Below, one piece after another: positions 1,632 to 63,092 of a DNA stretch of 64,000 bases (within the stretch, counting starts at the first letter, position 1; each line of letters begins with the position of its first letter). Position numbers and translations under genes: made by a program. Source of the stretch: Begonia masoniana. Taxonomy: Eukaryota; Streptophyta; Magnoliopsida; Cucurbitales; Begoniaceae. The notes beneath the pieces are model-generated. The model had not been told where the DNA came from, made no database searches, and worked only from the letters and a program-made list of their open reading frames with translations. The stretch is taken from contig CM039508.1 in NCBI GenBank assembly GCA_022432975.1, positions 17,707,330 to 17,771,329 of the forward strand, in the 5' to 3' direction.

Positions 1632-1936
1632 GCCTCTGAAGATCGGAGGCTTCTGAAGAAAAATAGAGAAAAAAATTGTCGTTGAAGGTTGACTAGCCGT
1701 TAACTATCCGTTGGAGTAGCCGTTGGGCATCGGCTCCCCAACCACACGCGTGTGCAATTACAGTGTCAGATCAGTGCGTGCCATTACTTGAACATCCCTT
1801 CGTGCATGCCTAAGTGTCTTCGTGCATGCTAATATGCCTTTGTGCACGCCAATCGGATACCCTGGTTCCCACCCGCGTGCTAACCAGCGAATGATCCTCC
1901 GTGAGCTCTCATCAATGAGTGCTGCTCGTTTGTTCG

Positions 1937-3474: not shown

Positions 3475-4543
3475 AGCTGTGTGCACGCTCCTGCCTTCGG
3501 TCACGTCTTCCCTTACGTGCCCCAAAACCCGATCATCGATCTATCCTATAAACTAACCACACTTGTATGCTATATGGCACAAGGCAACTCTTTGCCCCAA
3601 AATTAAATAACGAAGAAAGACCAATGTTTTGCCTTATAAAAAGAATAACAAATGGGAAATGCTTGGTTACGATGAATTTGTTGTAAGGAAGACAAATTCT
3701 CTCTTAAACATGAAGCTATCAAAAAGGTCTTCTCCTGTAAAACTAACAAACTTGTTATATACAAGATTAGTCGGGTAACGTACCTTTGTTGGAGAGCGAG
3801 TCATAGGCCTCTGAGGCATATCAGTTATTTAAGTTCCTTTTTAGGGCTGCGTTCCTTAGTGAACTTGAAGACATTTTTTAAATATTTTATAGGATATTTT
3901 TTCCTCTTAATTGCACTTTTCTCTTTGGTAGTCGCTAGCAGATTATGAGTGTGAGTGTGAGTGTGAGTGTGTGAAGTTGAATCCAATCTTCGTGAATGTG
4001 GTTAGATTTTCTTATTGCTAAAATCTTCTCATCTTCATTCTATTGGGGTTGAACAAGAATGTATAAACTCTCAAAAACTACAATAGGTGCCATTGAAGTT
4101 GATAGCCATCATTAGGTGGCCATTTAGACTACCTTCCATTCCTACGATCATATCTTCTTCATCCTAGAAATTTTTGTCACGAAATTTGGAGGCGACGTCC
4201 CCACTTATAGAGCTATCCAAAATTTGACCGAGTTATCATCTTCCCTAATGAGGTCTTGTTTTCAGCCAAGTGGTGTGATATGATTCTCTAACAACCCTCA
4301 CCATTTTCATTATATGTCTCGATTTCTAGAGCTTTTGGCTGAGATATTTGGAGGTTGTTGTCCATACGTATAAAGGTTGATGTTGTCAAAAAGTTCACTT
4401 GAAGACATTCCCAATTGACAAAGTTATTGCTTCCTCAAGTCAACTCCCAAAATTTTCCTAGAATTTGAGTTTTCCTTGGAGTTGCCATCTTTCCATTTTG
4501 GTGGTGTGTCATTCCTCTTAGCAATGAAGCACATATTTGTCCC
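3475..4543. other. Non-coding AT-rich stretch with a GTGTGA microsatellite
   Basis: No gene is recognisable. A (GTGTGA)n microsatellite lies at about 3946-3974. TATAAAAAG at about 3634 on the plus strand is TATA-like but has no supported downstream frame. The CT- and GT-rich text at 4100-4450 looks like decayed transposon sequence. Confidence 0.4.
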
Positions 4544-7235: not shown

Positions 7236-7785
7236 CTACACCATAGAATTAAACACGTGAGCTAGAGGCTCAGTAAATCTAAGTGAATGCAAATGTATGC
7301 TATGCTATGCTCTTTCAAACTATGCGTTCTTTTCACTTCTTTTCTTTTCTTTGTTTAGGTTTCTATGGGTCACCCAAAGCTTCACTCTCGTTAGATAGGA
7401 GCGGCACATCCCGCGATTGGATAGCCCCTCGGATCTAGCTGGGGGGAAAGCATGCTTCCTCTGACAGCCATGCCTGAACCACCGCACCCGGCGTGACTAT
7501 CTCTGCATTCATTTACGTTCTTTGTTTACCTTTTTCCATGTAAAAATGCTTTGAAATTCATTTTGCATGCGTGCTTAGAAAACCATGCATGGACATGCTC
7601 GATGCAATAACAATAACAAAACAATGAACATAAAGCATTAAAAATCAACAAATACTAACATTCTATAACTTAAAGTAACCTAACTACCCATCCTAATCAC
7701 CCAAACACACATATCTCCAATCTCCTCGATCGACTCAATTAATACGGTGTAGGCCAAGACGGCCAAACAAGTCACAGAGACTTAC

Positions 7786-11681: not shown

Positions 11682-12234
11682 GTAAGTTCTCGTGATTTAC
11701 TGTGGCCGATTGGCCTACACCATAAGTTGGAATTTGTGTTGAGGATTGATTGGTATTTTGTTTGTTTAATTGCTTTGGTTGGGTAGTTTAGGCTTGATCG
11801 TTGTTATAGATTAAGCTTGGTGACGTTTGATGGTATACTCGTTATGTATGTTTTATTGTATGTTAAATTGTTCATGCATTATGGTTTCAAAACGGCAAGA
11901 AAATGAATTTACGCATCGGTTTTATGAAAAGAAAATGCATGTAAAAGCAAGTAAAATATCACAGTAAACAACCATGGCATGGGTTATCGGGGATGAGGTT
12001 CAGACCTGGCGTTCCGTGGAGAACGGGTTTTCCTCCCTTCAGATGGTGTGGGCTGTCTAATCGCTTGACGTGCCCTATCCATCTATCGAGCGTTTCTGAT
12101 AATCATAGACTGACACGTACTGCTAAATGAAATGATATGGACGGCTTTCATAAAAACTGCATACAAATGTTTATGCATAGCATTTACGTATAATTTGCTG
12201 AGATTTTTATCTCATAGGTGTCTTTATGGTGTAG

Positions 12235-12290
12235 GTGACTACGAGTAAGGTGAGGAAGATGTCCATCTACCTGACGAGCCTGCAGTTTGA
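12235..12290 (+). other. Candidate LTR exon 3, Tk1 5' copy, with premature stop
   Basis: After TATGGTGTAG the frame reads DYE, then TAA, then GEEDV and onward to TGA at 12288-12290. The 3' LTR copy (28456) has CAA in place of this TAA, so the stop is a mutation in this copy. Confidence 0.45.
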
Positions 12291-13558: not shown

Positions 13559-13621
13559 GTAAGTACGTTATATGCTATATTTGTTTTTGTTTCTTAGGGT
13601 TATTGCCTTTAACCTTTATAG
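13559..13621 (+). other. Candidate leader intron between primer-binding site and gag, Tk1
   Basis: The donor is CAAACT/GTAAGTACG and the acceptor is CCTTTATAG/GTGTACAAA, nine bases before the gag ATG. The length is 63 nt. Tk2, Tk4 and Tk5 have the same arrangement at the same place. Confidence 0.45.
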
Positions 13622-14886: not shown

Positions 14887-15364
14887 GTAAGTAAAGTATG
14901 CGTGTGCCTTCGGGCCTACATCACAAAACAGTAGGATTGTATATGCTTGATTGTGTTTGTATGTCATGCATCATATTTTGAAAATATACGAAAATGAATT
15001 TACACGAAATGACATGGTAAGGAATGAACAAACTGTAACAGTTGTTAAGGGAACTAATCTGCCCCTTAATCAAGAGAGAGGATTTATGACTTTGGGGTAA
15101 GTGATCCAAACCCCAATTTCACAGGGGGATCTGAACAGTTTGTTAAGGGAACTAGTCCGCCCCTTAATCGAGAGAGAGGACGTATGACTTTGGGAGAAGT
15201 GATCCAACTCCCAATTTCACAGGGGGATCGGATCAGAAACGAATGCATATGCAACTGAGATGAGAAAGTAGAAATTTGCATGTTTAGGAATTTATGTTCA
15301 GTATTTCATTCATTACTGCTTTACTTACTTAGCATTAGGCTAATAGATGAGTTTTGTGATGTAG

Positions 15365-15411
15365 GTACTGAGCTTTCAACAGGTGAATTCCCTGAGTTCA
15401 CTGAGGAATAG
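15365..15411 (+). other. Candidate LTR exon 3 with 14-residue acidic end, Tk2 5' copy
   Basis: After TGTGATGTAG: GT, then 14 codons TELSTGEFPEFTEE, then TAG. The total of 47 nt equals that of Tk3, Tk4 and Tk6 LTRs. Confidence 0.5.
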
Positions 15412-16764: not shown

Positions 16765-17693
16765 TGTAACACCCAGATTTTCGGGATTTTGTAAATAAAT
16801 AATACAATGGCATTTTTGTAAATATGTCAAATCAAGTCAGTTTTTCAAAAAGAAAGCGTTATTACGATTCTAATAATTATTAAGGATTTTAAGAAAATTT
16901 CGGGGATTTTAGAAGTCTAACGCTAATTTTTACCAGAATTACGTTTATCGTTATACAAAGGACGTTTTAGTAAAAGTAGTAAACGAGGTCCGAATTGCGA
17001 ACGGACAGTTTTAATGGAACCCTAGTAATAAATTGAAGTTATTGGTGAAATAAGAGAAATTGGAGAAACCGAATCGTTAGCTAATTAACGAAACGAAGGA
17101 CGAAACAAATAGAAAACAAAGGAAGGGCAAGATGGTAATTTGCCAAGCCAAGTTTTATTAAAAACAAAATTTCTTCTTGTCCCTCACCATTTCTCACGAT
17201 TCTCTCTCCCTCCTTGCGTTCGCCGGCAATTTCTCTCACGGCGACCTCCATTTCCGACGATCGAGCTCTCCGATCGTCTCGATCCTTCACGTTTCTTCCT
17301 CCTCTCGCAACCCTAGGTATGATTCTATGGTTTTAGAAAAGTTTATTTCAAGTTTTACGAAGTTTAAACGATTAGGGTTCGTTTAGGGTTTTGTGAAAAA
17401 CGCGATTTAGGTTTAGAAATCAGTAGGGTTATCGTAGTTATGAATATAAAGGACATATTGAGCATTATTGGACGAAGTTAAGTCGAGTTACGAGAAATGT
17501 TAAAGATAGAGGATTTTAGGGTTTTTGGAAAAGTCGTTAATGGATGTTTCGTGGTATCGAGTGCGAATTGGTTGTTGAAATACCTCAATTAGTTAAGTTA
17601 GAATTTTAGGAATTTCCTTAGTTAAGGATTTTGCTAGTTTGAGCATTAAATTGTTTAAACTCGTTTTAACGACAATTTGGTGAAATTGCTTAG

Positions 17694-17738
17694 GTGAACA
17701 ACGCTCGTGGACGGAGCTTGAGCTGCAACGGACACGAG
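17694..17738 (+). other. Candidate LTR exon 2 (45 nt), Tk3
   Basis: Flanked by TGCTTAG and GTAAGTTCTCG. In the exon-3 frame it is fully open (EQRSWTELELQRTR) and also joins exon 1 without a stop. Confidence 0.55.
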
Positions 17739-18325
17739 GTAAGTTCTCGTGATCTTCTCTGGCGGATTGGCCTACACCGTACGTCGAGGTCGTCTCGAGG
17801 AATTGGTGACGCTTTTGGTTTAAATTGTTTTGGTTGGGTAGCTAGATATGATATGCTTTTAATAGCTTTTATTGTCTTGATGGTATGTATGTTGTTTGTT
17901 TACTTTAAGTACGTAACTGTTCATGCATCACGGTTTTAAATTACGCATAGAAAATAAATTTCTGCACAATGTTTTAAAGAAAATGGCGATGCGGCCTGGA
18001 GAGGGGCTATTGATCTATTGTGTAGGCACGAAGGGGTCTGTCACAATACCGCATCTAATATGTACTCATGTATGTTATGGTCACGCGAGGTGGGGCTCAG
18101 GCACGGCTGTACGTGTTGTAAGCGTGTACCCTCCTCCTCTAAGTGGAAAGGGTAGTCCGACCGCTGGATGTGCCCTCTCCATTTAGGGGGATGAGATCTC
18201 GGTGACAACCAGAGTAAAGATAATGAAAATGTTGAATGATTTTACGAACTCATTTGCATAGCACGCATTGCATTTACGTAGAGCTTACTGAGATTTTTAT
18301 CTCATAATGTGTCTGTATGGTGTAG

Positions 18326-18372
18326 GTGACTTGGACATAGGTGCGGACGAGATCCCTCCACCTGAGGAGTGA
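18326..18372 (+). other. Candidate LTR exon 3 with 14-residue acidic end, Tk3
   Basis: After TATGGTGTAG: GT, 14 codons DLDIGADEIPPPEE, TGA. With exons 1 and 2 spliced, the frame is open for about 270 nt back to a TAA near 17136 but has no ATG. Confidence 0.55.
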
Positions 18373-18839
18373 TGCAGTTGACGGAGGATGATTGCAGGAG
18401 TGCGATGGCGCAGTCGAGGTGCATTTTGACCCATGGGACTCATGGTTAGGTGTTTTGAGGATTTTTGGAAATTGTCGGGCTAATGGTTGTATAGAAACAT
18501 TTTAGGGTGTTTGGTCTCGATAGTTGATAGGTTACGTTTAGAGTTTTTAAAACGTTTTGAAAATGTATTTGTAAATGTTTGGTATTAGGTAATCGAACCA
18601 CGCAGTTTGTTTTTATGAAATTAGGTTATGTTTTTAATTGAGTTATAAGTCATTATTTTTGGGTGATTAGCAAATGATAAATCGATGGGGTTGTGAGTAA
18701 GTTTATGTTGATGATTATTGAAGGGTTTAGTGTTTATGTATATATTTGGAAAGAGAATTGAGTATGCAAGGGAAAGGAGGAAAAGGAAAGAAAAGAAGAG
18801 ATGAGGGAAAAGGGTGCGCAGGTCCTCTGGAAATCCAGA

Positions 18840-21374: not shown

Positions 21375-23459
21375 TGTAACACCCGGTTCTATTGAACTAA
21401 TTCTCTATTCTTTTAATTAATGGTACACTTTATTTGGTAATAATAAAAGTAGGGTTAATGGATGACTAGGCAAGGGTATAAGGGTAATTGAAAATTTAAA
21501 AGTAGATAACGTATTTAAAGAAAGGGGTTTTGGGTTTAATGCACTATAGCAGCCACTGTTTCCCAAATCATTTTCGACTCTCAGTTCCTCAGCTCAGCAG
21601 AGTGCGCTAGGAGGTCCTTCTCCAATTTTCCCTTCGACTTAGGTGAGTTTTACTAAGGTATCTTACTGCATTATGATTATAGACGATAGAGGAGTATCGT
21701 AGATGCATGTTCCTGGGAAATGCAGGGCGTAGGAGTTGAGTCGGGTCTCGTATGAATCGGGAATGCACATAGGGCAGAGTCCCAAACTAGCTCCTAGGGT
21801 TTCTGAATGGTATAGGATGAGGTCAGTGAAGATCTAATTGATATTCTGTTTATGACTCTAGGTGAGCAAAGCTTCCAAAGTAGTTGAAACCGAGCTTTTT
21901 CAGGGAGCCAGGTAAGTAAAGTATGCGTGTGCCTTCGGGCCTACATCACAAAACAGTAGGATTGTGTATACTTGATTGTGTTTGTATGCCATGCATCATA
22001 TTTTGAAAATATACGAAAATGAATTTACATAAAATGGCATGGTAAGGAATGAATAAACTGTAACAGTTGTTAAGGGAACGAATCCGCCCCTTAATCAAGA
22101 GAAAGGATGTATGAATTTGGGGGAAGTGATCCAAACCCCAATTTCACAGGGGGATCTGAACAGTTTGTTAAGAGAACTAGTCCGCCCCTTAATCAAGAGA
22201 GAGGACGTATGACTTTGGGAGAAATGATCCAACTCTCAATTTCACAGGGGGATCAGATCAGAAACGAATGCATATGCAACTGAGATGAGAAAGTAGAAAT
22301 TTGCATGTTTAGGAATTTATGTTCAGTATTTCATTCATTACTGCTTTACTTACTTAGCATTAGGCTAATAGATGAGTTTTGTGATGTAGGTGCTTAGCTT
22401 TCAACAGGTGAATTCCCTGAGTTCACTGAGGAATAGGTGAAGTTGGAGGAGCACTTCTATGTTATGGTTAGGTGCTCTGATGAGGCAGTTTAACTTTTGT
22501 CTGAATGAGAGTTTATAGTAGTTAGGTATTCTGATGAAGTGTTCTGAGAATTTTAATGATAGTAGAAGTTTGATACTTCTTTTAACGTTTCTGTGATCTT
22601 ATTTTCTGGATTTAGAAATATGGTTTGATTTCGATTGTAGCTTGCTATTCTGAATTTTTAAGAATTATGGATTTGTATTGATCAGAATGATTTCAGCAAA
22701 ATGTACAAAAATCGTTTAGCAGTCGGGTTTACTCCTTATTAGCGTCTCTTTTTGGTCTATCGGTAGAAGTAAGGTGTTTTGTCCGCCGACAGATGTTGGA
22801 GGATTGAATCATCCGACTGACGTCATCGGAAGATGTCTTCAGTAGAGGCCATCGGATGATCTCTTCAGTAAAAGTCATCGGAAGATGTAGGCAGTAAATT
22901 TGTCGTTTAGTGATCGAGCGATGTGTTTTTGTTTTGTGAGTAAAAGCTTTTGTCGTTTTGTGATCGGTGTGAGTTAGATGAATGAATCATCCGGCTTACT
23001 TCATCGGTAGATGTGTAAATAAGTTTTATCATTTTGTGATCGGTGTGAGTTAGATGAGTGAATCATCCAGCTTATGTCATCGGTAGAAGTGTATAATAAG
23101 TTTTGTCGTTTTGTGATCGGTGGAAGCCTTCAGTTTCTATTTCTGCCACTTTTCGTTGACTTTGTTTAGCGGCAGATGTGTTTGACTCTTACGATTTTCA
23201 AGTTTTCACGCTTAAGTCTTGATATCTTCTGGCCGAATTATTTCTTAGTATTTTAACCGATTATTCAAACATTGTTTTATAGCTCTGCTTAATTCTGTTT
23301 TGCTCAAAAGAATTTCCGCTACAAGATTTTAAATGTTTTGAGATTTTAGAAAATGTCAAATTTTGACTTTCGAGCGAAGTTTTAAATTTGGTCCAAAGTT
23401 TCTCAGTTATGTTCGGATTATGTGTAACGAACTGGGTTCAGAGAACTCGGGGCGTTACA
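21375..23459 (+). mobile_element. Tk2 3' LTR (2085 bp)
   Basis: It begins TGTAACACCCGG after the purine tract AAGGGGGTAGAT (21363-21374) and ends GGGGCGTTACA before AAACC. It is 77 bp shorter than the 5' LTR, mainly from fewer copies of the TCGTTTTGTGATCGG repeat near its 3' end. TATTTAAAG lies at 21512-21520. Confidence 0.93.
22390..22436 (+). other. Candidate LTR exon 3, Tk2 3' copy, with early TAG
   Basis: After GATGTAG the frame reads GT, GCT, TAG (22395-22397), then the same LSTGEFPEFTEE and TAG as in the 5' LTR. The GAG-to-TAG change is specific to this copy. Confidence 0.45.
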
Positions 23460-27901: not shown

Positions 27902-28455
27902 GTAAGTTCTCGTGATTTACTGTAGCCGATTGGCCTACACCACAAGTCAGAATTTGTGTTGAGGATTGGTTGGTGTTTTGTTTGTTTTATTGCTTTGGTT
28001 GGGTAGTTTAGGCTTGATCGTTGTTATAGATTAAGCTTGGTGACGTTTGATGGTATACTCGTTATGTATGTTTTATTGTATGTTAAATTGTTCATGCATT
28101 ATGGTTTCAAAACGGCAAGAAAATAAATTTACGCATTGGTTTCATGAAAAGAAAATGCATGTAAAGGCAAGTAAAGTATCACAGTAAACAACCATGGCAT
28201 GGGGTTATCGGGGATGAGGTTCAAACCTGGTATTCCGTGGTGAGCAGGTTTTCCTCCTTTCAGATGGTGTGGGCTGTCTAACCGCTTGATGTGCCCTATC
28301 CATCTGTCGAGCGTTTCCGATAATCATAGACTGACACGTACTGCTAAATGAAATGATATGGATGGCTTTCATAAAAACTACATACAAATGTTCATGCATA
28401 GCATTTACGTGGAATTTTCTGAGATTTTTATCTCATAGGTGTCTTTATGGTGTAG

Positions 28456-28511
28456 GTGATTACGAGCAAGGTGAGGAAGATGTCCCTCCACTTGACGAGC
28501 CTACAGTTTGA
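28456..28511 (+). other. Candidate LTR exon 3 with 17-residue acidic end, Tk1 3' copy
   Basis: After TATGGTGTAG: GT, then 17 codons DYEQGEEDVPPLDEPTV, then TGA. It is three codons longer than the 14-codon form of other families but keeps the GEED core. Confidence 0.5.
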
Positions 28512-28602: not shown

Positions 28603-29024
28603 AAACATGGTTTAGAGTCGAGATTTTATAAGAGAAAGTCATCGTCCAAAGTCTGTGGATGATAAGGTTCAGGTAAGTATTATGACAGGGAAAGTTAGCG
28701 TCCACAGTCATCGTCCAAAGTCTGTGGACGATGAGTTTATGTAGCCCGTGGACAATGAAGTCACGTGGACTGGGGACGATAAAGTCACGTGATCTGTTGA
28801 CATTAAACTTAAATAAGTCTATGGACATTTGTCTGTGGACGATGAGTTTATGTAGCCCGTGGACAATGAAGTCACGTGGACTGGGTACAATAAAGTCACG
28901 TGGTCCGTGGACGAATGAGACGAAACCCGAGTGGAATTTATTTCCCGTGTAACAACCCGAGTCTCTCCAAACCCGATTGTTACTCATGTCATAGGACTGG
29001 ACTAAGAAATTCACGGAAAAATAG
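28603..29024 (+). repeat. Duplicate of 29807-30228 inserted out of order in Tk1 3' LTR
   Basis: The text from ATGGTTTAGAGTCGAG to AATTCACGGAAAA is the same in both places (offset 1204 bp) and includes the first 76 bp of the Tk6 solo LTR (28948-29023). It therefore arose after that insertion. The left joint is at GTAGAAAC, which recurs at 29518 where the LTR continues normally. Confidence 0.9.
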
Positions 29025-29518
29025 ACAACATCTACCGATAGAAATAGACAACATCTACCGATAGAAATAGACAACATCTACCGATAGAAATAGACAACAT
29101 CTACCGATAGAAATAGACAACATCTACCGATAGAAATAGACAACATCTACCGATAGAAATAGACAACATCTACCGATAGAAATAGACAACATCTACCGAT
29201 AGAAATAGACAACATCTACCGATAGAAATAGACAACATCTACCGATAGAAATAGACAACATCTACCGATAGAAATAGACAACATCTACCGATAGAAATAG
29301 ACAACATCTACCGATAGAAATAGACAACATCTACCGATAGAAATAGACAACATCTACCGATAGAAATAGACAACATCTACCGATAGAAATAGACAACATC
29401 TACCGATAGAAATAGACAACATCTACCGATAGAAATAGACAACATCTACCGATAGAAATAGACAACATCTACCGATAGAAATAGACAACATCTACCGATA
29501 GAAATAGACAACATCTAC
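29022..29518. repeat. 23-bp tandem array, about 22 copies
   Basis: The unit is AGAAATAGACAACATCTACC plus GAT; I count 22 occurrences of ACATCTAC. The same unit occurs two or three times inside the Tk6 solo LTR (for example 30509-30556), its likely source. Confidence 0.95.
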
Positions 29519-31314
29519 GTAGAAACTCTTTTAGGATGCTTGGAATTTGGTTAGATTAATCAAAACGTTGTTTTGATGTATTTTGAGGATTTAATTAGTT
29601 TCTGCTATATATGAATGAATATTGACGAATAGATTGATGTTTTGATGAAGTAGATCCGATATTGATGTACGGATTAGGCTTTGATGAATTTGAGATAGAC
29701 TTTGATGATTTTAAGTTATGCAGGGGAAAGAAGGTGAAAACAGCTCTCTAGACAAAATCCAGAAAGTTAGCCGATCGATAGCCAGGAAGAGGCGATTGAT
29801 CGGGTAATGCATGGTTTAGAGTCGAGATTTTATAAGAGAAAGTCATCGTCCAAAGTCTGTGGATGATAAGGTTCAGGTAAGTATTATGACAGGGAAAGTT
29901 AGCGTCCACAGTCATCGTCCAAAGTCTGTGGACGATGAGTTTATGTAGCCCGTGGACAATGAAGTCACGTGGACTGGGGACGATAAAGTCACGTGATCTG
30001 TTGACATTAAACTTAAATAAGTCTATGGACATTTGTCTGTGGACGATGAGTTTATGTAGCCCGTGGACAATGAAGTCACGTGGACTGGGTACAATAAAGT
30101 CACGTGGTCCGTGGACGAATGAGACGAAACCCGAGTGGAATTTATTTCCCGTGTAACAACCCGAGTCTCTCCAAACCCGATTGTTACTCATGTCATAGGA
30201 CTGGACTAAGAAATTCACGGAAAATTTTAAAATTTCTCTCAATGATGAAAATTCTATCTTTAATCCTTGATTATACAGCGGAAAACACAATATGTAAACG
30301 ACATTTACAAATCGACAAAACGTTAAGACTTTTGACTGAGGGAATTGAAAATCAAAGGACATCTACCGATCGCAAACGACAAAACTTTCTTCCCGTATCT
30401 ACCGATCGCAAAACGACAAAACATAATTCCCACTTCTACGGATAGTATTAAACAACGACAACTACCGATTGTCACGTGCAACCCACTTGACTCATTAAAC
30501 TTCTTCCGATAGAAATAAACAACATATACCGATAGAAATAGACAACATCTACCGATCACAAAACGACAAGACATTATACTCACTTCTACCGATAGTATTA
30601 AAGAACGACAACTACCGATTGTCACATGCAACCCACTTGACTCATTAAACTTCTTCCGATAGAAATAAACAACATCTACCGATAGAAATAGACAACATCT
30701 ACCGATCACAAAACGACAAGACATTATACTCACTTCTACCGGTAGTGAAAAATCTACATCTTCCGATTGACATGTGCATCCCACATGACTCATTAAACAT
30801 CACCCGATAGAAATAAAAAACATCTACCGATAGAAATAAATGACATCTACGATCACAACAAGACAAGACATTATACTCACTTCTACCGGTAGTGAAAAAT
30901 CTACATCTTCAGATTGACATGTGCATCCCATGTGACTCATTAAACCTCTTCCGATAGAAGACTTCTACCGGTGAGCTACCGAAAGTAATAAGCAACATCT
31001 ACTGATAGAAGACATCCTGACTTTTACAAACTTAAACATGACTGACGTAAACTTGCACAATATAATCCATAGACTCATCCAAATGCGTGTAGCGGTAAAA
31101 CTTAAATAAAATAGACCTTTCTATCATTTCATGATCATTCTCAAACTCAAGATTTCAGTCAGACAAATTCCAATACCCATTGTTTTAAAAAAATTCATCC
31201 TATTAGACTTCAGTATTCATAATCCTTACTAACATCATAAGAGTAGTAACCAGGGTTCATAATTGCCTTTCCAGCCACAAATCTGTCACCCTGAGCACCA
31301 TCCAGCAACCAGTC

Positions 31315-31361: not shown

Positions 31362-31947
31362 CTACATCATAAGGTTTAAACTATAAGCCTAATGCTTAGT
31401 AAGGAGTGCAACGCTAACATGTATGCATGAATGCACAGTTTAAGAAAAACACAGGTTCATGATCTTTTCTTGTTCTTGTTCTCATTCATCGTTTACATCG
31501 CGTTCTTGTTCATCCTTTACATCATGTGGATTAAGGGAGGATTTGTGCCGAAAAGGGGGTTGACAGTGAAAGTGTATATAGTCCATTGCAGGTTGTATTC
31601 ATGGTTCTCCTTTTGGACAGTGACATACACCAAACCGCCCCCAACCCTCTCTTAATCCTTGTTGCATAAGTTTCTTGTTCATATCTTAATCGTGAAGGAA
31701 GACATGCACTTAAAACATTTTCATATGCTTGAAAAGGAAAACAATCGTGAAGCATGAGTATGAGTACTCTCATTTCATCAGACTAAAAGGACAGCTCATT
31801 CATTCATCAAAAGATCATACTGTCAACTCGAGTATCATAACCAAACAGACAATAGCACAGATAACCTTTAAACATTATAGACAACTTCTACCTAGTACCA
31901 TTGTGATGTAGGGCCTTAATGGCCGGGAATCTTACTCACTCACTTAC

Positions 31948-33967: not shown

Positions 33968-34515
33968 ATAAGTGGTGTTAGGTTTCTGGCTTCTAAAGCC
34001 CTACATTATATCGATGTTAGGAATTAAGTGTCGTAATGATGTTTTCACGATTTTTGAATTCTAAAGAGTCGGGTAGACTAGGACGTTTCCTATTAGTTGT
34101 CGATAGGCTCATTTATGTACATCATGAATGATTAGATGATTGGTTGGAGCACTTTCTTCATGCATCATGTCTCCTCCTTTAAGATTTAAAGATATGTTTT
34201 TGCATGCATGTTTTCAACTAAATAAAGTAAAGTAAATAAAGATAAGTAAAGTGGGAGGATGAGTAGGGCACGAGGTGCGTTAATGCAACTCAGGGCAGGA
34301 CAATACGTAATGGCAACTCAGGGCAAGTGTTTGGTCTACAGGGTAGACGTGATGGTGCCGGGCCTACTCATGCCTAAAGATATATAAGTATATGTTATGT
34401 AAAGTGAATAAATGAAAAACGAGCATGTTTTGAAAAATCATGCATTATGTATACACATGTTTTAGTGCACCTCTTTACTAAGCATTAGGCTTAATGTGTT
34501 TATCGTATGATGTAG

Positions 34516-34562
34516 GTGACGATAACGAAGGTGAGGAACCTCCTCCTGATGATCAGGCGTAG
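34516..34562 (+). other. Candidate LTR exon 3 with 14-residue acidic end, Tk4
   Basis: After TATGATGTAG: GT, 14 codons DDNEGEEPPPDDQA, TAG. The 3' LTR has lost this region at the Tk5 insertion. Confidence 0.55.
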
Positions 34563-35887: not shown

Positions 35888-35952
35888 GTAAGTGTTTAAG
35901 TTTAAGCATGATTCCTAGATATTTATATTGTTTTATTGTCTAATGTGCCTAG
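35888..35952 (+). other. Candidate leader intron, Tk4
   Basis: Donor CAACT/GTAAGTG and acceptor TGTGCCTAG/GAAAGAG, 65 nt, ending 10 bases before the ATG at 35963. Confidence 0.5.
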
Positions 35953-38900: not shown

Positions 38901-40527
38901 AATACCATCCGGGAAAGGTGAATACGGTGGCAGATGCATTGAGTAGGATGCCTAAGACCAAGGAGTCAGTCGTTTACTGTATGCCAGCTTCATTGAGAAA
39001 GGAGATTCAGAGGTATGAACTTGAAGTAGTTTCAGAGCTTTCGGCCCTACTTGCTGACTTGACCATACGACCTACTCTTTTGGACAAAATTAAGGAGGCT
39101 CAACAGATGGACTCGGAAGAAAAGGAAGCAATTTTGACCAAGTTGACCGATGCATCTTCTGATTTTAGTTATTCGGAGGATAGCGTTATAAAGTTTCGGG
39201 ACCGTTGGTATGTTTCGAAGGATGAAGAGTTGAGGAAGTTGATTTTTGCAGAGGCTCATTCATCATCGTTTTCAGTGTATCCGGGTAACACCAAGATGTA
39301 CTGAGATCTTAAAGTGCTTTATTGGTGGCCGAATATGAAACGTGATGTGGCCAGTTATGTACAGTCCTGCCTTGTCGCCAACAAGTTAAGGCAGAACACC
39401 AGAGGCCAGGTGGAATGTTACAACCTTTACCGATTCCTGAGTGAAAGTGGGATCATATTGCAATGGACTTCATAGTTGGATTACCGAGGACAATAAAAGG
39501 GCATGACAGTATATGGGTCGTAATTGATAGATTGACGAAGACAGCTCATTTCCTTCCAGTAAAGATGACTTACACGATGAATCAGTTTGCAGAGCTATAT
39601 GTCCAGGAGATTATAAGGTTGCACGGGGTTCCTATATCGATCGTTTCGGACCGGGATCCCAGATTTACTTCGAGGTTCTGGAAAAGTTTACAAAGCGCTA
39701 TGGGTACTAAGTTAACTTTTAGCACGGCTTTCCACCCACAAACTGACGGGCAATCTGAAAGGACGATTCAGATACTTGAGGATATGCTGAGAGCGTGCGT
39801 GCTAGAGTTTCAAGCCTCATGGAGCCGGTATTTACCATTGGTTGAATTTGCATATAATAACAGTTATCAGTCCACGATTGGTATGGCTCCGTACGAAGCA
39901 CTTTATGGCAGAAAGTGTAGGTCGCCACTGTATTGGGATGAAGTGGGCAAAGCTAAGTTGATTGGACCAGAAATATTACAACAACTATCTGAGAAGGTTG
40001 CTCTTATCAAGAAAAGAATGGAAATTGTGCAGAGTCGCCAAAAGAGCTATGCCGATCGAAGAAGACGAAATTTGGAGTTTGTAATTGGTGATGAGGTGTT
40101 TTTGAAAGTTTCACCGTTCAAAGGCGTGGTTCGCTTTGGTAAGAGAGGGAAGTTGAATCCACGGTTTGTTAGACCTTTCCCGATTACAGAAAAGATTGTA
40201 GCTACAGTGTACAAGCTTCAGTTGCCAATGTATATGGAGGGTGTACATAATGCCTTCCACGTGTTGATGTTGAGGAAATGTGTACGAGATCCAACGCACG
40301 TGGTAGAACCGATTAGTCTTGAGTTACAGCCAACCTTAACTTACGAAGAGAGGCCAGTGCAAATAATGAAGTACGCTGTGAAAGTTTTACGCAATAAGTC
40401 AATCCCACTGGTTAAGGTGTTATGGAGGAACCAAAACATAGAGGAGGCGACGCGGGAGCGCCAACAGGAAATGATGGACAAATATCCAGAGTTGTTCAGG
40501 TACGAAATTTTGGGGGCAAAATTCTAA
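35963..40527 (+). pseudogene. Tk4 Gag-Pol polyprotein, disrupted
   Basis: The ATG at 35963 is taken as the start because it follows the leader acceptor; an in-frame TTG at 35936 would lie in the intron. Order: Gag core (FDGQSSDPTSAEEWI, FWWDSV, SVAEYVRRFESL); CCHC knuckle CFRCDKVGHKAVDC (near 36845); protease with DTG changed to D-T-V (37016-37024); an in-frame 150-bp duplicated linker; RT with FIDDIL (38171); RNase H with the first aspartate codon now AAC (38618); integrase, its zinc histidine changed to tyrosine (39278); core MDFIVGLPR (39463); Tekay-type chromodomain-like tail. Stops at 37148, 38408, 39302 and 39442, and one missing base near 39374. It is less decayed than Tk1. Confidence 0.95.
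37379..37678 (+). repeat. 150-bp tandem duplication in the Tk4 protease-RT linker
   Basis: Both halves start TACTCGAT.AAGC and encode YS.K..CF.F.VS...VSMQ, then a DELP.LP or DEFPGLP end, the proline-rich motif that precedes RT. The copies have diverged at many sites and stay in frame. The other elements here have a single copy. Confidence 0.85.
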
Positions 40528-43739: not shown

Positions 43740-43833
43740 GTAAGTCGGTATTAAAATTTTATATTTTTATAAAAGTATGTTAGAAATATTTTGACAATAT
43801 AGATTTTCTTAAAATGAAATCATTGTGATGTAG
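43740..43833 (+). other. Candidate leader intron, Tk5
   Basis: Donor CATCAA/GTAAGTC and acceptor TTGTGATGTAG/ACT, 94 nt, three bases before the gag ATG at 43837. Confidence 0.5.
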
Positions 43834-43836
43834 ACT

Positions 43837-46043: not shown

Positions 46044-46344
46044 GTAAGTGGATATATTAGGATTTCTGGCCACTAGGGCCCTACACCATAAGGATACTAG
46101 GAAAAATTGTTGAAATGTTTATCTGATGATTATGACTATAGGTTTGCCATGAGAGGAAGTAATTGGGTAGGAAGATGTTAAGTTACATGATTGTTTTTAC
46201 TCGTTCATACTGTATGACATTCCTCTGGGAAAATTCGAGGTCCATTCATTAATGTGCTCGTTTATGATTAAGGTAAAACATGGAAAACAAATGTATATCA
46301 TAGTAAGCGGAACGGGGAAATGAACTATGAATATGTTCATAAGG

Positions 46345-48165
46345 CTTATGTATGGCCGTGAATTTCTCCCACGGTGGAGACGAGTCGATGATATGTATGG
46401 CTCGTGAATCTCCCACTGGTGGGAGGCGCGAGTCGATGAGATTGTATGGCTCGTGAATTCTCCCACTGGTGGAGGCCGAGTCGATGATATGTATGGCTCG
46501 TGAATTCTCCCACTGGTGGAGGCCGAGTCGATGATATGTATGGCTCGTGAATTCTCCCACTGGTGGAGGCCGAGTCGATGATATGTATGGCTCGTGAATT
46601 CTCCCACTGGTGGAGGCCGAGTCGATGATATGTATGGCTCGTGAATTCTCCCACTGGTGGAGGCCGAGTCGATGATATGTATGGCTCGTGAATTCTCCCA
46701 CTGGTGGAGGCCGAGTCGATGATATGTATGGCTCGTGAATTCTCCCACTGGTGGAGGCCGAGTCGATGATATGTATGGCTCGTGAATTCTCCCACTGGTG
46801 GAGGCCGAGTCGATGATATGTATGGCTCGTGAATTCTCCCACTGGTGGAGGCCGAGTCGATGATATGTATGGCTCGTGAATTCTCCCACTGGTGGAGGCC
46901 GAGTCGATGATATGTATGGCTCGTGAATTCTCCCACTGGTGGAGGCCGAGTCGATGATATGTATGGCTCGTGAATTCTCCCACTGGTGGAGGCCGAGTCG
47001 ATGATATGTATGGCTCGTGAATTCTCCCACTGGTGGAGGCCGAGTCGATGATATGTATGGCTCGTGAATTCTCCCACTGGTGGAGGCCGAGTCGATGATA
47101 TGTATGGCTCGTGAATTCTCCCACTGGTGGAGGCCGAGTCGATGATATGTATGGCTCGTGAATTCTCCCACTGGTGGAGGCCGAGTCGATGATATGTATG
47201 GCTCGTGAATTCTCCCACTGGTGGAGGCCGAGTCGATGATATGTATGGCTCGTGAATTCTCCCACTGGTGGAGGCCGAGTCGATGATATGTATGGCTCGT
47301 GAATTCTCCCACTGGTGGAGGCCGAGTCGATGATATGTATGGCTCGTGAATTCTCCCACTGGTGGAGGCCGAGTCGATGATATGTATGGCTCGTGAATTC
47401 TCCCACTGGTGGAGGCCGAGTCGATGATATGTATGGCTCGTGAATTCTCCCACTGGTGGAGGCCGAGTCGATGATATGTATGGCTCGTGAATTCTCCCAC
47501 TGGTGGAGGCCGAGTCGATGATATGTATGGCTCGTGAATTCTCCCACTGGTGGAGGCCGAGTCGATGATATGTATGGCTCGTGAATTCTCCCACTGGTGG
47601 AGGCCGAGTCGATGATATGTATGGCTCGTGAATTCTCCCACTGGTGGAGGCCGAGTCGATGATATGTATGGCTCGTGAATTCTCCCACTGGTGGAGGCCG
47701 AGTCGATGATATGTATGGCTCGTGAATTCTCCCACTGGTGGAGGCCGAGTCGATGATATGTATGGCTCGTGAATTCTCCCACTGGTGGAGGCCGAGTCGA
47801 TGATATGTATGGCTCGTGAATTCTCCCACTGGTGGAGGCCGAGTCGATGATATGTATGGCTCGTGAATTCTCCCACTGGTGGAGGCCGAGTCGATGATAT
47901 GTATGGCTCGTGAATTCTCCCACTGGTGGAGGCCGAGTCGATGATAGGCTCGTGAATTCTCCCACTGGTGGAGGCCGAGTCGATGATATGTATGGCTCGT
48001 GAATTCTCCCACTGGTGGAGGCCGAGTCGATGATATGTATGGCTCGTGAATTCTCCTACTGGTGGAGGCCGAGTCGATGCTATGTATGGCTCGTGAATTC
48101 TCCCGCTGGTGGAGGCCGAGTTGATGATAAGTACGGCTCGTGAATTCTCCCACTGGTGGAGGCCG
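46345..48165. repeat. 47-bp tandem array, about 38 copies
   Basis: The unit runs from GTATGGCTCGTGAATTCTCC through CACTGGTGGAGGCCGAG to TCGATGATAT. Middle copies are identical; the first three and last three are diverged, and one copy near 47946 is short. That is the usual pattern of homogenisation by unequal exchange. The array lies in what would be intron 2 of the LTR. Since 47 is not a multiple of three, each minus-strand frame cycles through all phases, and frames of 539-634 codons result; they are not genes. The Tk6 LTRs at 30152 and 61875 lack the array. Confidence 0.97.
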
Positions 48166-48383
48166 ATCTAGTCGTTACTATGATTGCCCGACTGGCAAGT
48201 GACTATGTGCCCTATCTTTCTCCCTCGTTTCCTCCCTTAATACATGCTATGTAAATGATGAAAATGAGCATGAATGAAGAAAGATTTACGAACTTATGTT
48301 TCTTTAATTTGTACATTCATGTATGTCTGTCACCATGCATTCCTTACTAAGCATTAGGCTTATAGTTAAACCTTATGTTGTAG

Positions 48384-48430
48384 GCGAAGAGACTACAGGT
48401 GAAGATACTAATTTCAAAGAGGATATTTAA
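48384..48430 (+). other. Candidate LTR exon 3 with 14-residue acidic end, Tk6
   Basis: After TATGTTGTAG: GC, 14 codons EETTGEDTNFKEDI, TAA. Spliced to exon 2 it is open. Confidence 0.55.
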
Positions 48431-49898: not shown

Positions 49899-52518
49899 GC
49901 CAAGAATCGATGACTTATTTGATCAGTTAAAAGGAGCAGCAGTTTTCTCGAAAGTTGATCTAAGGTCTGGATATCATCAGCTGAGAATTAAGGAGGACGA
50001 CGTGTTCAAGACGGCGTTTCGTACCAGATATGGCCACTTCGAATTCCGAGTCATGCCGTTCGGATTGAGTAATGCACCAGCCGCATTTATGGATTTGATG
50101 AATCGGACTTTCAAGACATTTTTGGATGATTTTGTTATAGTCTTTATTGACGACATCCTTATCTATTCAAAGAGCAAGGATGAGCATGAAGAACATTTAA
50201 GGATTATCCTATCTATGTTGAGACACGAGAAGTTATATGCAAAGTTCTCCAAGTGTGATTTCTGGATGGAGAACGTGATTTTTCTTGGTCACATCATTTC
50301 AAAGGAGGGCGTAGCAGTGGACCCAGCAAAGATTGAAGCTGTAAGTAAATTGCCTCAACCAAAGAATGCATCTGAAATAAGAAGTTTCCTTGGTCTTGCG
50401 GGTTATTATCGGAGATTCGTAGAAGGTTTTTCAACTTTGGCCAACCCGCTTACGAAGCTAACAAAGAAAGAAGCCAAGTATTTATGGACTGATAAATGTG
50501 AGCAAAGTTTTCAAGAGTTGAAGAAGAGGTTAATCTCAGCACCCATACTAACTATCCCATCTGGATCAGGAAAATTTGTGGTTTATAGTGATGCTTCGAA
50601 GTATGGTTTGGGATGTGTCCTTATGCAAGAAGGAAAAGTGGTCGCCTATGCCTCGAGACAGTTGAAGGAACACGAGAAGAACTACCCAACACATGATTTG
50701 GAGCTTGCAGCGGTAGTTCATGCATTAAAGATTTGGAGGCATTATCTTTATGGAGAAAGGTGCGAGATTTATACGGATCATAAGAGTCTGAAATACTTTC
50801 TAACCCAGAAGGATCTGAACATGAGACAACGCAGATGGTTAGAATTGGTTAAGGATTATGACTGTGAAATTATTTATCATCCTGGCAAAGCTAATGTCGT
50901 AGCTGATGCTTTGAGTAGAAGAGCATCGTCTCAAATTTCTTCATTGCGACTGATTCCAGAACAGTTAACCAAGGAGATGCATAGATCTAACATCGAAGTT
51001 GTGCTGTTTGGGCTACTTGAGAGATTGTCTGCTATGACACTTCAGCCAAGTTTGCTTGAGCAGATAAAGGAGAAACAACGAGGAGATGCTTATATTTGCA
51101 AAGTTAAAAGTGATCTGGAAGCAAGAAAAGTTTCTGAGTTTTCTGTATCTGATGGCGGGATTATCCAGTTTAAGAAGAGATGGTGTATACCAGATGATGT
51201 AGAATTAAAGGAGGCTATATTGAAGGAAGCACATTCAACCCCTTACTCGATACATCCTGGATCAACAAAAATGTATCGAGATTTGAAGCAATACTATTGG
51301 TGGCGTGGGATGAAAGTGGATGTAGCCAAATTTGTGGAGAAGTGTCTTACTTGTCAGCAAGTCAAGGCGGAGCATCAACGACCTGCTGGTACTTTGCAAC
51401 CACTTTTGGTGCCTCAATGGAAGTGGGAGCATATTACTATGGACTTTGTAGTGGGACTTCCTAAGACTTTTAGAGGTCACGACTCCATTTGGGTGATAGT
51501 GGATCGATTGACCAAATCAGCACATTTCCTTCCTGTGAAGACTACTTATACCATGGATCAGTATGCTCAGCTTTATGTTCAGGAGATTATCAGACTACAT
51601 GGTACGCCTGTCTCTATCGTGTCTGATCGAGATACACGTTTTACCTCTAAATTTTGGAAGAGTATGCAGAAAGCTATGGGAACTCAATTGAATTTCAGTA
51701 CAACTTTTCACCCTCATACTGATGGACAATCGGAAAGGAAGATTCAAACCCTGGAGGATATGTTACGGGCGTGTGCTATTGACTTTCAAGGAAATTAGAG
51801 TAAGAACTTACCATTGGTGGAATTCGCCTACAACAATAGTTATCAAGCTTCGATCAGGATGACACCTTATGAAGCTCTCTATGGTAGAAAATGCAGATTT
51901 CCAAGGCATTGGGACGAAGTGGGTGAAGTAGTGTTAGTTGGGCCAGATATATTGAGGCAGACCGCTGAGATCGTTACACTTATCCGGAAGAGAATTCTTA
52001 TGGCCCAGAGTAGACAGAAAAGCTACGCTGATCGAAGAAGAAGGAAGTTGGAGTTTGCTGTGGGAGATCAAGTTTTCTTGAAAATCTCGCCAATGAGAGG
52101 TTTGATCCGTTTTGGAAAGAAAGGAAAATTAAGCCCAAGATTTATAGGCCCATTTGAAATCTCCAGAAGAGTAGGAGAAGTTGCATATCAGTTGATATTG
52201 CCAGATTCATTCAAGCATGTGCACAACATATTTCATGTATCGATGTTGAAGAAATATATCCCTGATTCCTCACATATCTTACCTATGAGATCTCTAGACT
52301 TCTCAATAAATCCCGACTTATCTTATGAAGAGAGACCAATTCAAATTCTGAAATCAGAAGAAAGGGAACTACGGAATAAGAAGATTTCGCTTGTAAGGGT
52401 TCTATGGAAGAATCAAAGTATTGAAGAAGCAACTTGGGAAAAAGTAGAAGAATCAAGAAGAATCTATCCTGAACTTTTCAGGTATGCATTTAAATTTCGA
52501 GGACGAAATTTCTTTTAA
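49899..52518 (+). pseudogene. Tk5 Pol, part 2 (RT, RNase H, integrase, chromodomain-like tail)
   Basis: It resumes RT after the CCACT duplication: [40 protein letters not shown] (50143-50154). RNase H has [14 protein letters not shown] and TDHKSLKYF. Integrase has the HHCC domain ([10 protein letters not shown]...[11 protein letters not shown]), the core [16 protein letters not shown] and TDGQSERK. The tail LRNKKISLVRVLW and PELF is the Tekay-type chromodomain-like end. A single in-frame TAG at 51796-51798 (expected tryptophan) interrupts it. Catalytic residues look intact. The gene stays dead because of the TAG, the LTR insertion and the missing knuckle. The upstream bases 49855-49898 belong to the solo LTR and its duplication. 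Confidence 0.95.
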
Positions 52519-52529
52519 GGTGGGTAGAT

Positions 52530-54266
52530 TGTAACAAAAAAAATATCCCACCGACGTTTGACAAAATTCAATTGGAGTAGGAGAGAATCAAACACAAAAT
52601 TTAATTTCTCAACTAATTCAACTACGATCTAACCAACATTTAAAGAAATGTTGGGATATTTTTCCCTTTTAAAATGATGAACTCAGTGAAGGAAAATCAC
52701 ACCGAAACCAAAATTCCCTCTCTCGTTTTGAAAACCAGAAAGCTTACCTCGTCGAAAAATAGCAACCCAAGTTCCGGTGAAGCTCTTTCTCTCGGCCGAG
52801 TTTCGTTTCTCGACAGCAAGAAACATTTCGAGCAAACGCCATATCTCTGACGAAAATCCCCTCAGCCGAGCATCCCTCCAGCGAACTCCTCTCCGGCGAA
52901 ACCTTCCTCGGCCGAATCTTTTCTCCGGTTTCGCTCGGCGTTTGGCGCTCCCTCGGCCACGCTCTCTCCCTTTCTGGTTCTGCTTGCCGTTCGACATCAC
53001 AGAGAGAGAAGCTCTCTCTCTGCTCTCTGCCCTCGCGAAGAAGAAGAATAGGAGTGTGGGTTTAGTTTTTATTTTAAAACTGAACCGGTTCTTTTTAGCC
53101 GAACCAAACCAAACCAGCTTGACCCGAACCCGACACTGTTCATCCAACCGAACCGAACCGGTACTGTTCATTCGACCGGCATTGTTCACCGAACCGACCC
53201 AGACCAGTACTGTTCATCCGAACCGAACCGACCAGAATTTGACCCGACTCTAATATCGACCCGATTCGACCCGCGATCACACGTAAGAAAATTCTGCCCC
53301 AAACTCTGTCAAATTGAATTTATTTAAATAGGAATTTAATACCAAGATTTGAATTAAATAGGATATTATTGAAATATTCGATATTGGAAAAATCCCTATA
53401 AACTCTAAACGCTCGGAATCCAGGTAAGTGAAATACAAGTTTTGGCTACGGCCCTACATCACCAGATTATTTTATAATTTTTTTCTGTCACACGTTTTCA
53501 ATGATTGAGCACGTATGTTAGAATATCGACATAGAATAGTTTAAAAGATAAAATGAATAGGTTATTTGCATGTGTATGAAAAAGTAAAAGAAATGCGATA
53601 GCAAAAGCCTGAACGACAGTGAGATGGTGAGCTTGAGCATATGTTTTAACGTGATAGCAAAAGCCTGAACGACAGTGAGATGGTGAGCTTGATCGTTAAA
53701 ATTAAAAGTAAAAGATGACGAAGCCTGAACGACAATGAGATGGCTAAGTCTTAACAGGATTCGGTAAAAGTAAAAGTAAAAGTTTTGCACGTATTTCTAC
53801 TTAATGAGTTTTTCTCACCTTTTTGTTTTAAAATTGTGATGTAGGTGAGTTTTTGTCTGAGGAAGAAATTGCTGCAACTGAGAACCCTCCAGTGGCAAGC
53901 GAGCATACAGATGAAGAACATGTTGATGATTTCGAGGGAATGATTTAAATTAAATATGCTTAAATTTTCAAACGATATTAATGTGTTATTTATGTTTAAG
54001 ACTTTAATTATTACTTTGAACTTTATTATTATTTAAAGTTTCATAAATTGTGTTAATTATGCAATGGTTTTAATATTTTGATAAGTTTATTGTTTCAAGA
54101 TTTTGATAAATTTATTACAAAGCTTCCGCGAATTTAAAGTTTTCAAATTAATATTTAAGTTTTCAAATCTATGATTTAGCGCTCGATTTCAAATCAAATT
54201 GGGGAAAATTCTAGGGTTTAAAAATTAGGGTTTCAAATTTGGGGATTTTAAAATTGGGGCATTACA
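52530..54266 (+). mobile_element. Tk5 3' LTR (1737 bp)
   Basis: It starts after the purine-rich AAGGTGGGTAGAT (52517-52529) and ends GGGGCATTACA. It is the same length as the 5' LTR with scattered substitutions. Its exon-3 frame (53845-53948) is also open for 33 codons. Confidence 0.95.
53845..53948 (+). other. Candidate LTR exon 3, Tk5 3' copy
   Basis: Same phase and length as 43229-43332 with two residue differences (I to T, R to H) and TAA at 53946-53948. Confidence 0.5.
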
Positions 54267-58193: not shown

Positions 58194-58230
58194 GAAGGAT
58201 AGAGAAAATGGGTTAGAAAATGATTGTAAT

Positions 58231-62479: not shown

Positions 62480-63092
62480 GTAAGTGAATGTACAGGTTTC
62501 TCGGTCATTAGGACCTTACATCAAAGGATGCTAGGTAGAAACTCATACGATGATTAGTAGTTCCCTTATGTTACTGTCTAACATTATGTTGATGATTAGC
62601 TCAATGGTAAGATCTCATGTTGGATAGTGCTCTATTCTGTAGCTTGATGATTTAAGAATTTCCATGTACATGCATCATGACTATTTTATGCATATGAAAA
62701 TGTTTTAAGAACATGGTTTTCTCATGAACCAAGTAAGAAGATAAAACTTATGCAACGTGGACTAAGTGAGGGTTGGGGGCAGTTCGGCGTATGTCACAGT
62801 CCAAAAGAGGGACATATGAATACGACCCGCAATAGGGACCAAGATCAAACTCACTGCCGAACCCCCTTTACCGGCACAAATCCTCTCTTAATCCACACAA
62901 CTTAAATGAAGAATATAATCAATGATTATGAATGATGAATATGATCCATGACTATGAATGATGATTACGAGCAAAGATATGAACAATAAAAGACTTATGA
63001 ACATGTGTTTTCCGAATTATGCATTCATGCATCCGTGTTAGTGTTGCATTCCTTACTAAGCATTAGGCTTATAGTTAAACCTTATGATGTAG

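What the first reader, a model, noticed from the sequence alone, without database searches (positions are those of the whole stretch)
18326..18372. Conserved 14-residue acidic reading frame with an aligned but variable stop codon in LTRs of many families
Directly after TATGRTGTAG/GT, seven LTRs on both strands have exactly 47 nt to a stop: DLDIGADEIPPPEE (18326, TGA), DFETGEEDVPPPEV (7235 minus, TAA), DDNEGEEPPPDDQA (34516, TAG), TELSTGEFPEFTEE (15365, TAG), EETTGEDTNFKEDI (48384, TAA), EELTGEDFQSRDDV (63093, TAA) and KDLPGEDSKFSEDV (31361 minus, TAA). Tk1 has a 17-residue and Tk5 a 33-residue version. The bases differ widely, but frame, length, G-E-E/D core and acidity are kept, and three different stop codons fall at the same place. 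That pattern suggests selection on a peptide end. I know of no description of an LTR-encoded peptide like this, but I cannot search.
Basis: partly seen in the sequence, partly recalled or inferred. Interest (0 to 1): 0.88.

Follow-up and report, generated by a model that had tools for sequence, protein, structure and literature searches.

The report
Base-paired introns inside retrotransposon LTRs
Retrotransposon repeats in this DNA, likely a plant's, share a predicted intron whose two ends are complementary to each other, so the short 'peptide' that seems to start there likely begins at a splice site rather than being a translated product, and the intron would let one element make both messenger RNA and genome RNA.

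Summary
In detail: all seven listed frames translate as written, with three kinds of stop at codon 15, and a neutral simulation reaches that stop alignment in 0, 0, 1 and 0 of 5000 runs from four starting copies. The peptide reading is weaker: predicted upstream exons carry 2 ATGs in 8 LTRs, exon 2 shows no coding signal, and the pol-end donors of two open pol tails are out of phase.
TATGRTGTAG|GT looks like a 3' splice site. In 12 of 13 LTR copies a perfect AG|GTAAGT donor stands upstream; predicted introns are 421-613 nt, 2340 in one copy with a tandem array. A block starting at intron base 29-37, CCTACAYCATA, is the reverse complement of the motif and changes with it between families: swap test 6 of 20000; helix score 27.1, at most 5.0 when slid. 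A short intron before gag and ATG-rich introns suggest that splicing strips upstream AUGs, leaving unspliced RNA as genome. Splicing is untested, and folding predicts the helix strongly in only 5 of 11 copies. Verdict: a structured intron within the LTR, a new variant of known retrotransposon splicing; the acidic peptide remains possible but has no start codon.

The parts
18326..18372 (+). copy D: first 47 nt after the predicted 3' splice site; the acidic 14-codon frame and TGA of the finding
18316..18326 (+). copy D: TATGGTGTAGG, 3' splice site and 3' strand of the long-range helix
18288..18304 (+). copy D: hairpin 2 (CTGAGATTTTTATCTCA), candidate branch-site region CTNAG
17771..17782 (+). 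copy D: CCTACACCGTAC, 5' strand of the helix, preceded by hairpin 1
17739..18325 (+). copy D: predicted intron 2 (GAG|GTAAGT ... TGTAG|), 587 nt
17694..17738 (+). copy D: predicted exon 2 (45 nt, no ATG)
17317..17322 (+). copy D: predicted donor 1 (CCCTAG|GTATGA) ending the CT-rich exon 1
11682..12234 (+). copy B5: predicted intron 2; 5' strand 11714-11724 CCTACACCATA, 3' strand 12225-12235
27902..28455 (+). copy B3 (3' LTR partner of B5): predicted intron 2; 3' strand 28446-28456
7236..7785 (-). copy E: predicted intron 2; 5' strand 7753-7743, 3' strand 7245-7235
46044..48383 (+). copy F: predicted intron 2, lengthened by a 47-bp tandem array; 5' strand 46080-46093, 3' strand 48371-48384 (one mismatch)
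62480..63092 (+). copy G: predicted intron 2; 5' strand 62515-62523, 3' strand 63083-63093
31362..31947 (-). copy H: predicted intron 2; 5' strand 31912-31904, 3' strand 31371-31361
33968..34515 (+). copy A5: predicted intron 2 (donor reads ATAAGT here; GTAAGT in the 3' LTR copy A3 at 41433); 5' strand 34000-34010, 3' strand 34506-34516
14887..15364 (+). copy C5: predicted intron 2; 5' strand CCTACATCACAAAA 14915-14928 pairs with TTTTGTGATGTAGG 15352-15365
21912..22389 (+). copy C3: same intron, same helix
42808..43228 (+). copy I5: predicted intron 2, 421 nt; helix 8 bp; exon 3 begins GTGAGT, 33-codon acidic frame
53424..53844 (+). copy I3: same intron; helix 10 bp (53453-53462 with 53836-53845)
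43740..43833 (+). element I: predicted short intron just before the gag ATG at 43837
13559..13621 (+). element B: predicted short intron just before the gag ATG at 13631
35888..35952 (+). element A: predicted short intron just before the gag ATG at 35963
52482..52487 (+). element I: donor-like CAG|GTATGC directly after the conserved end of the pol tail, phase 2
40500..40505 (+). element A: donor-like CAG|GTACGA at the same place, phase 2

Best explanation
The conserved TATGRTGTAG|GT is the predicted 3' splice site of an intron inside these retrotransposon LTRs, it is complementary to a conserved CCTACAYCATA block just after the intron's predicted 5' splice site, and the acidic frame is likely the start of the next exon rather than a translated peptide. 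Shown by sequence: an AG|GTAAGT donor, a short hairpin, the complementary block, a second hairpin and the TGTAG|G acceptor stand in the same order across the families, and the two complementary blocks differ together between families. Inferred: transcription would start at the TATA-like sequences near the LTR start, so the intron would lie in the RNA leader. Inferred: the helix would bring the two splice sites together and hold the acceptor in a duplex, so that splicing is partial. Inferred: the spliced RNA, with few upstream AUGs, would be the gag-pol messenger, and the unspliced RNA, full of AUGs, would be the genome copied by reverse transcriptase, which would explain why both LTRs of an element still carry the intron.
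For: Donor GTAAGT in 12 of 13 copies. It ranks first of 79-244 GT sites in the stretch scanned in 7 of 8 LTRs, and the acceptor ranks first or second in 7 of 8 (matrices recalled, not fitted). In 12 of 12 copies that hold both ends, the best uninterrupted helix (7-16 bp) uses the two blocks. Slid by 1-3 nt the mean score falls from 27.1 to at most 5.0; swapping strands between 9 families reaches the observed score in 6 of 20000. Family C's deviation is matched on both strands (16 bp). Both hairpins recur with changed but paired bases. In a four-family alignment (E, G, A5, C5) with 9% all-identical columns, hairpin 2, the 3' splice site, donor 2, the exon 2 acceptor and the stretch with hairpin 1 and CCTACA are among the best eight windows. 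ATG counts over 8 LTRs: exon 1 has 2 (7.6 expected), exon 2 has 0 (6.9), intron 2 has 306 (125.9; 139 of them in F, inflated by its array). A GTAAGT...AG intron stands directly before the gag ATG in 3 of 3 elements examined.
Against: No RNA data. Taken singly, three helices are not significant against shuffles: F 99/500, I5 42/500, G 27/500. Predicted pair probability over 11 copies is about 0.8-1.0 in A5, C5, C3, E and I3, 0.2-0.5 in B5, B3 and I5, and near zero in D (the copy of the finding), G and H. The exon 2 acceptor is weak (rank 3-27), and exons 1 and 2 could not be placed in family I. Exon 3's end is unsettled: conservation runs on for about 110 nt, against a 15-nt exon ending at AG|GTGAGG. 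The first 62 nt of exon 3 are not clearly short of ATG (8, 10.5 expected) and the rest of the LTR is rich in it (277, 188.0 expected), so the AUG-stripping idea needs a further intron 3 that is only a guess. All families come from one window; eight pol-containing loci from elsewhere lack the pair, four of them with under 1.2 kb beyond the pol match but one (L008) with 3.5 kb. In intron 1, F and G share a 7-8 bp match at the same place, the other six do not. The family-swap test ignores shared descent.
Confidence: 0.62

Rival explanations
1. The 14-codon frame is the translated last exon of a spliced LTR or pol message, giving a protein with a short acidic tail.
For: Aligned stop beyond neutral simulation; acidic residues 5-7 of 14 in 8 of 8 families; frame-0 periodicity p=0.09, or 0.015 leaving out codons 4-6; B/D/E differences by codon position 4/11/19; a 33-codon acidic frame in family I.
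Against: No ATG in exon 2 of 8 LTRs and 2 in exon 1 of 8; exon 2 lengths 44-50 nt are not congruent modulo 3 between families and show no periodicity (p=0.72 in 5 families, 0.75 in 8); pol-end donors of A and I are phase 2, which before GTGA gives an immediate stop (phase arithmetic); GGT is fixed at base level.
Confidence: 0.15
2. Compatible with the best explanation but different for exon 3: the block is only a splicing signal, with a second donor (AG|GTGAGG) 15 nt into the exon, so the acidic codons are by-products and exon 3 may be a 15-18 nt microexon, or a zero-length recursive site in I (TGTAG|GTGAGT).
For: AG|GTGAGG or AG|GTGAAT scores 7.7-8.5 in B, A, E, G, H and C; GGT fixed while most other third positions vary; I's exon begins with a full donor sequence.
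Against: D and F carry weaker forms, not listed at the threshold; conservation continues past the stop to about +110; purine content of the first 47 nt (0.53-0.66) is scarcely above the following stretch (0.53-0.60).
Confidence: 0.3
3. The two complementary blocks close a leader stem over which ribosomes shunt, as in plant pararetroviruses, and the acidic frame lies at the landing site.
For: The stem brackets a stretch with more ATGs than expected in 8 of 8 LTRs. Shunting in plant pararetroviruses is in the title of PMC5902531, of which I saw only the search listing.
Against: The stem ends lie beside a perfect GTAAGT and a TGTAG|G acceptor, which shunting does not need; predicted intron 1 upstream also holds 64 ATGs over 8 LTRs.
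Confidence: 0.05
4. The conserved blocks are DNA-binding sites in opposite orientation, not RNA strands.
For: Inverted copies of one consensus would also look complementary (inference, no call).
Against: The blocks sit at splice-site consensus sequences, change together by family, and pair only in exact register.
Confidence: 0.05

Closest known systems
Ogre retrotransposon (pea and Medicago) partially spliced intron
   Different: Ogre's intron lies between the gag-protease and RT-integrase reading frames; here the predicted introns lie inside the LTR and leader, with paired ends.
EVADE and BARE1 spliced gag RNA
   Same: Splicing divides RNA between roles; [quoted passage not shown] PMC12786077 passages).
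   Different: Splicing there makes a gag-only RNA, not a shortened leader; no intron in the LTR is described in the passages I saw.
CRM chromoviruses whose gag-pol frame extends into the 3' LTR
   Same: LTR sequence used as part of a gene (PMC3605345, passages).
   Different: There the reading frame runs on into the LTR; here the two open pol tails (A, I) stop before the LTR.
Introns with complementary ends (for example yeast RPS17B/rp51b; recalled, no call)
   Same: Pairing between a block near the 5' splice site and one near the 3' end of the intron.
   Different: As recalled, there the partner lies near the branch site; here it is the 3' splice site itself, and the intron is in a mobile element.

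Membership tests
U2-type spliceosomal intron | GT...AG ends with donor and acceptor consensus | tested here: met
   12 of 13 copies GTAAGT; TGTAG|G in 12 of 12 copies that reach the site
U2-type spliceosomal intron | Spliced RNA | not testable with these tools
   no transcript data
U2-type spliceosomal intron | Branch site upstream of AG | tested here: inconclusive
   CTNAG invariant within hairpin 2 in 10 of 10 aligned copies (family I not in that alignment); not a perfect consensus
Intron with base-paired ends | Conserved complementarity of the two ends with coordinated change | tested here: met
   best helix in 12 of 12 copies; swap test 6/20000; three single copies not significant; three of 11 folded copies give it near-zero probability
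Ty3/gypsy element with Tf2-1-like integrase tail | gag, protease and SH3_Tf2-1 domains | tested here: met
   Pfam hits in pieces of elements I and A; the other elements were not scanned
   no chromodomain hit at E<=0.001 in the two pol pieces scanned, though some close relatives carry PF00385; no tree made
LTR-encoded peptide | Start codon in frame | tested here: not met
   exon 1 has 2 ATGs in 8 LTRs, exon 2 none; the frame from B5's exon 1 ATG ends in TAG at the exon end; exons 1-2 of family I not placed
LTR-encoded peptide | Purifying selection in one frame only | tested here: inconclusive
LTR-encoded peptide | Ribosome footprints or peptide | not testable with these tools
   none held
Known structured RNA family | Rfam match | tested here: not met
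   0 matches at gathering score in the window

The most novel reading that the evidence does not exclude
A family-rich group of plant retrotransposons carries an RNA switch inside its LTR: the two ends of an intron pair and mask the 3' splice site, so that each transcript becomes either a spliced, AUG-poor gag-pol messenger or an unspliced genome, with GTRA at the exon starts and the acidic exon as further conserved parts of the switch.
Probability: 0.4. Interest if true: 0.82.

Novelty: new variant of a known kind. Interest (0 to 1): 0.6.

Why it matters
How one retrotransposon RNA serves both as messenger and as genome is called a major question in the abstract of PMC3735527. A 2025 review says that plant LTR elements generally lack introns apart from named exceptions (PMC12786077, passages). 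Introns kept inside the LTRs themselves, with ends locked by base pairing, would be a testable answer, and would mean that solo LTRs can carry ready-made exons and splice sites into host genes (inference). I found no description of this in the listings; those listings are capped and the library lacks most subscription papers.

Tried and rejected
Terminal pol exon: a donor-like CAG|GTAY stands right after the pol tail in A and I, and by eye in the frameshifted tail of C, which first suggested that pol splices into the LTR and gains the acidic tail. Phase arithmetic rejects it for A and I: phase 2 before GTGA gives an immediate stop. Gag donor: A has a phase-1 donor of score 10.1 in gag, I none above 7.3. 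Unspliced small frame: the in-frame stretch upstream is 5-41 codons and varies. Peptide running through exon 2: no periodicity. Helix in intron 1: F and G share a 7-8 bp match at the same place, the other six LTRs do not; in the guessed intron 3, B has an 8-bp match and I none above threshold. More families: viral contigs gave one distant and one partial pol hit, 0 motif hits, and 23 donor-plus-block places of which 2 had an 8-nt partner, 931 and 2363 nt on; I computed no chance level for that and did not follow them. Contigs filed under bacteria gave 11 loci; eight of them, L003-L010, were examined at the pol end, and none of the 13 loci then held has the pair.

Full report
WHAT WAS CLAIMED. 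All seven are present as described, with the exceptions listed under the observation check.

WHERE THE BLOCK LIES. The window is a nest of Ty3/gypsy-type elements and LTRs. Gag, protease and Tf2-1-like integrase-tail domains are found in pieces of elements I and A. I use these names: B (LTRs from 11014 and 27238), C (14350 and 21375), A (33115 and 40543), I (41914 and 52530), D (16765), E (8621, minus), F (45357), G (61875), H (32646, minus); a 5 or 3 marks the LTR. Where both LTR ends were set, lengths are 1.7-2.7 kb; the motif lies 1.0-1.6 kb in, or 3.0 kb in F, which contains a tandem array of 47-bp units. The 3' LTR of A is interrupted by element I before the motif, so of 13 LTR copies 12 hold both intron ends.

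SPLICE SIGNALS. TGTAG|G is a usual plant 3' splice site form (recalled). Upstream in the same LTR a perfect AG|GTAAGT stands in 12 of 13 copies; the exception, A5, has a changed first base while its sister A3 keeps GTAAGT. With an approximate plant matrix (recalled frequencies) this donor ranks first of 79-244 GT sites in 7 of 8 LTRs, one per family without I, and the motif acceptor ranks first in four, second in three and seventh in one. About 45 nt before the donor stands an acceptor-like TAG|GTRA, making a predicted exon 2 of 44-50 nt in the same 8 LTRs; it is a weak site (rank 3-27). Before that, a CT-rich predicted exon 1 ends in a donor of rank 1-7. TATA-like sequences stand about 160-175 nt before donor 1 in E, A, F and H, with less perfect forms in G and D. 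Exons 1 and 2 were not placed in I. In three elements with gag (I, B, A) another GTAAGT...AG intron of 63-94 nt ends 3-10 nt before the gag ATG.

THE HELIX. The block CCTACAYCATA, starting at intron base 29-37, is the reverse complement of TATGRTGTAGG. In 12 of 12 copies the best uninterrupted helix between the first 91 nt of the intron and its 3' end uses these blocks, 7-16 bp long. Shuffles of the 5' piece reach the observed score in 0-2 of 500 for nine copies, but in 27 (G), 42 (I5) and 99 (F) of 500 for three. Over nine families the mean score is 27.1 in register and at most 5.0 when slid by 1-3 nt; exchanging strands between families reaches it in 6 of 20000 permutations, a test that does not correct for descent. 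B, D and E have C-G where A, C, G, H and I have T-A at the R/Y position; F has a mismatch there; C has TTTTGTGATGTAGG with CCTACATCACAAAA. Thermodynamic folding of 11 copies gives the helix a probability of about 0.8-1.0 in A5, C5, C3, E and I3, 0.2-0.5 in B5, B3 and I5, and almost none in D, G and H; F was not folded because of its length. Two local hairpins flank the strands. The one before CCTACA folds in 8 of 8 pieces (GGCC/GGCC in several, GGTC/GACC in G, GGCT/AGCC in A). The one before the acceptor folds as TNAG-loop-CTNA in 7 of 8 pieces, with G-C, A-T and T-A at its second pair; in the eighth, E, the script cut an earlier stretch, and by eye one search shows the same hairpin. Rfam has no match in the window at gathering score.

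CONSERVATION. Aligning one LTR from each of four families (E, G, A5, C5), only 9% of columns are identical in all; the best eight 25-column windows are hairpin 2, the 3' splice site, donor 2, the stop region of the finding, the exon 2 acceptor, the LTR tip TGTAACACCCG, an unexplained stretch at E 1110-1130, and the stretch with hairpin 1 and CCTACA. The stop region is thus conserved as DNA too, which weakens any inference from the stop alone.

THE PEPTIDE QUESTION. For: stop alignment, acidity in 8 of 8 families, weak triplet periodicity, and the 33-codon acidic frame of I. Against: across 8 LTRs exon 1 has 2 ATGs (7.6 expected) and exon 2 none (6.9 expected), so scanning ribosomes would find no start. 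Exon 2 differs in length by non-multiples of three and shows no periodicity. The pol-end donors of A and I are in phase 2. The core AGGTGAG is largely fixed in bases. The frame +1 reading is open almost as often. I give translation a probability of about 0.15.

HOW IT LIKELY WORKS (inferred). An RNA started near the TATA-like site would run through all these introns. Unspliced, the leader of B would be 2358 nt with 71 ATGs and that of A 2555 nt with 68. If exon 3 were the 15-nt piece ending at AG|GTGAGG, the predicted exons would sum to 261 nt with 1 ATG in B and 215 nt with none in A, where one further exon could not be placed. Spliced RNA would then be fit for translation, and a splice past the primer site would make it unfit for copying; unspliced RNA is what reverse transcription must have used, since both LTRs of B, C and I keep the intron. 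A helix that holds the acceptor would keep splicing partial. Which way the helix acts, and the existence of intron 3, are not shown.

LIMITS. One window, no transcripts, no whole-genome collection (genome search did not complete). The host species was not identified; where relatives of the pol tail carry a species name in the listing most are plants, and two are proteins filed under a Snodgrassella MAG.

Noticed in passing
L003-L010: Eight contigs filed under bacteria (for example Streptomyces clavifer, a Mycobacterium, a Solirubrobacter) encode Ty3/gypsy integrase tails at 45-57% identity to element I, so they look like plant contamination in bacterial genome records.
   Followed up: partly
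window, exon 2 starts of 8 families and exon 3 starts of 9: 15 of 17 predicted exon starts after AG begin with GTRA, which after the phase-2 pol donor would read Arg-stop at once.
   Followed up: no
52482, 40500, 21334: A donor-like CAG|GTAY directly follows the conserved pol tail in elements I, A and C; its acceptor is unknown.
   Followed up: partly
43824-43839: The acceptor just before gag in element I is TGTGATGTAG|ACT, almost the same letters as the LTR motif.
   Followed up: no
1936-3480, 46347-48166, 58224-59223, 29019-29525: Near-perfect tandem arrays with units of 30, 47, 30 and 23 bp; the 47-bp array lies inside the LTR intron of copy F.
   Followed up: no
42028-42711: A 227-codon stop-free stretch inside the LTR of element I; probably open by its CT-rich composition.
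   Followed up: no
exon 3, about +48 to +110 (for example 18373-18435): Conserved GGAGGATG and GACCCRTGGG blocks after the stop in several copies, unexplained.
   Followed up: no
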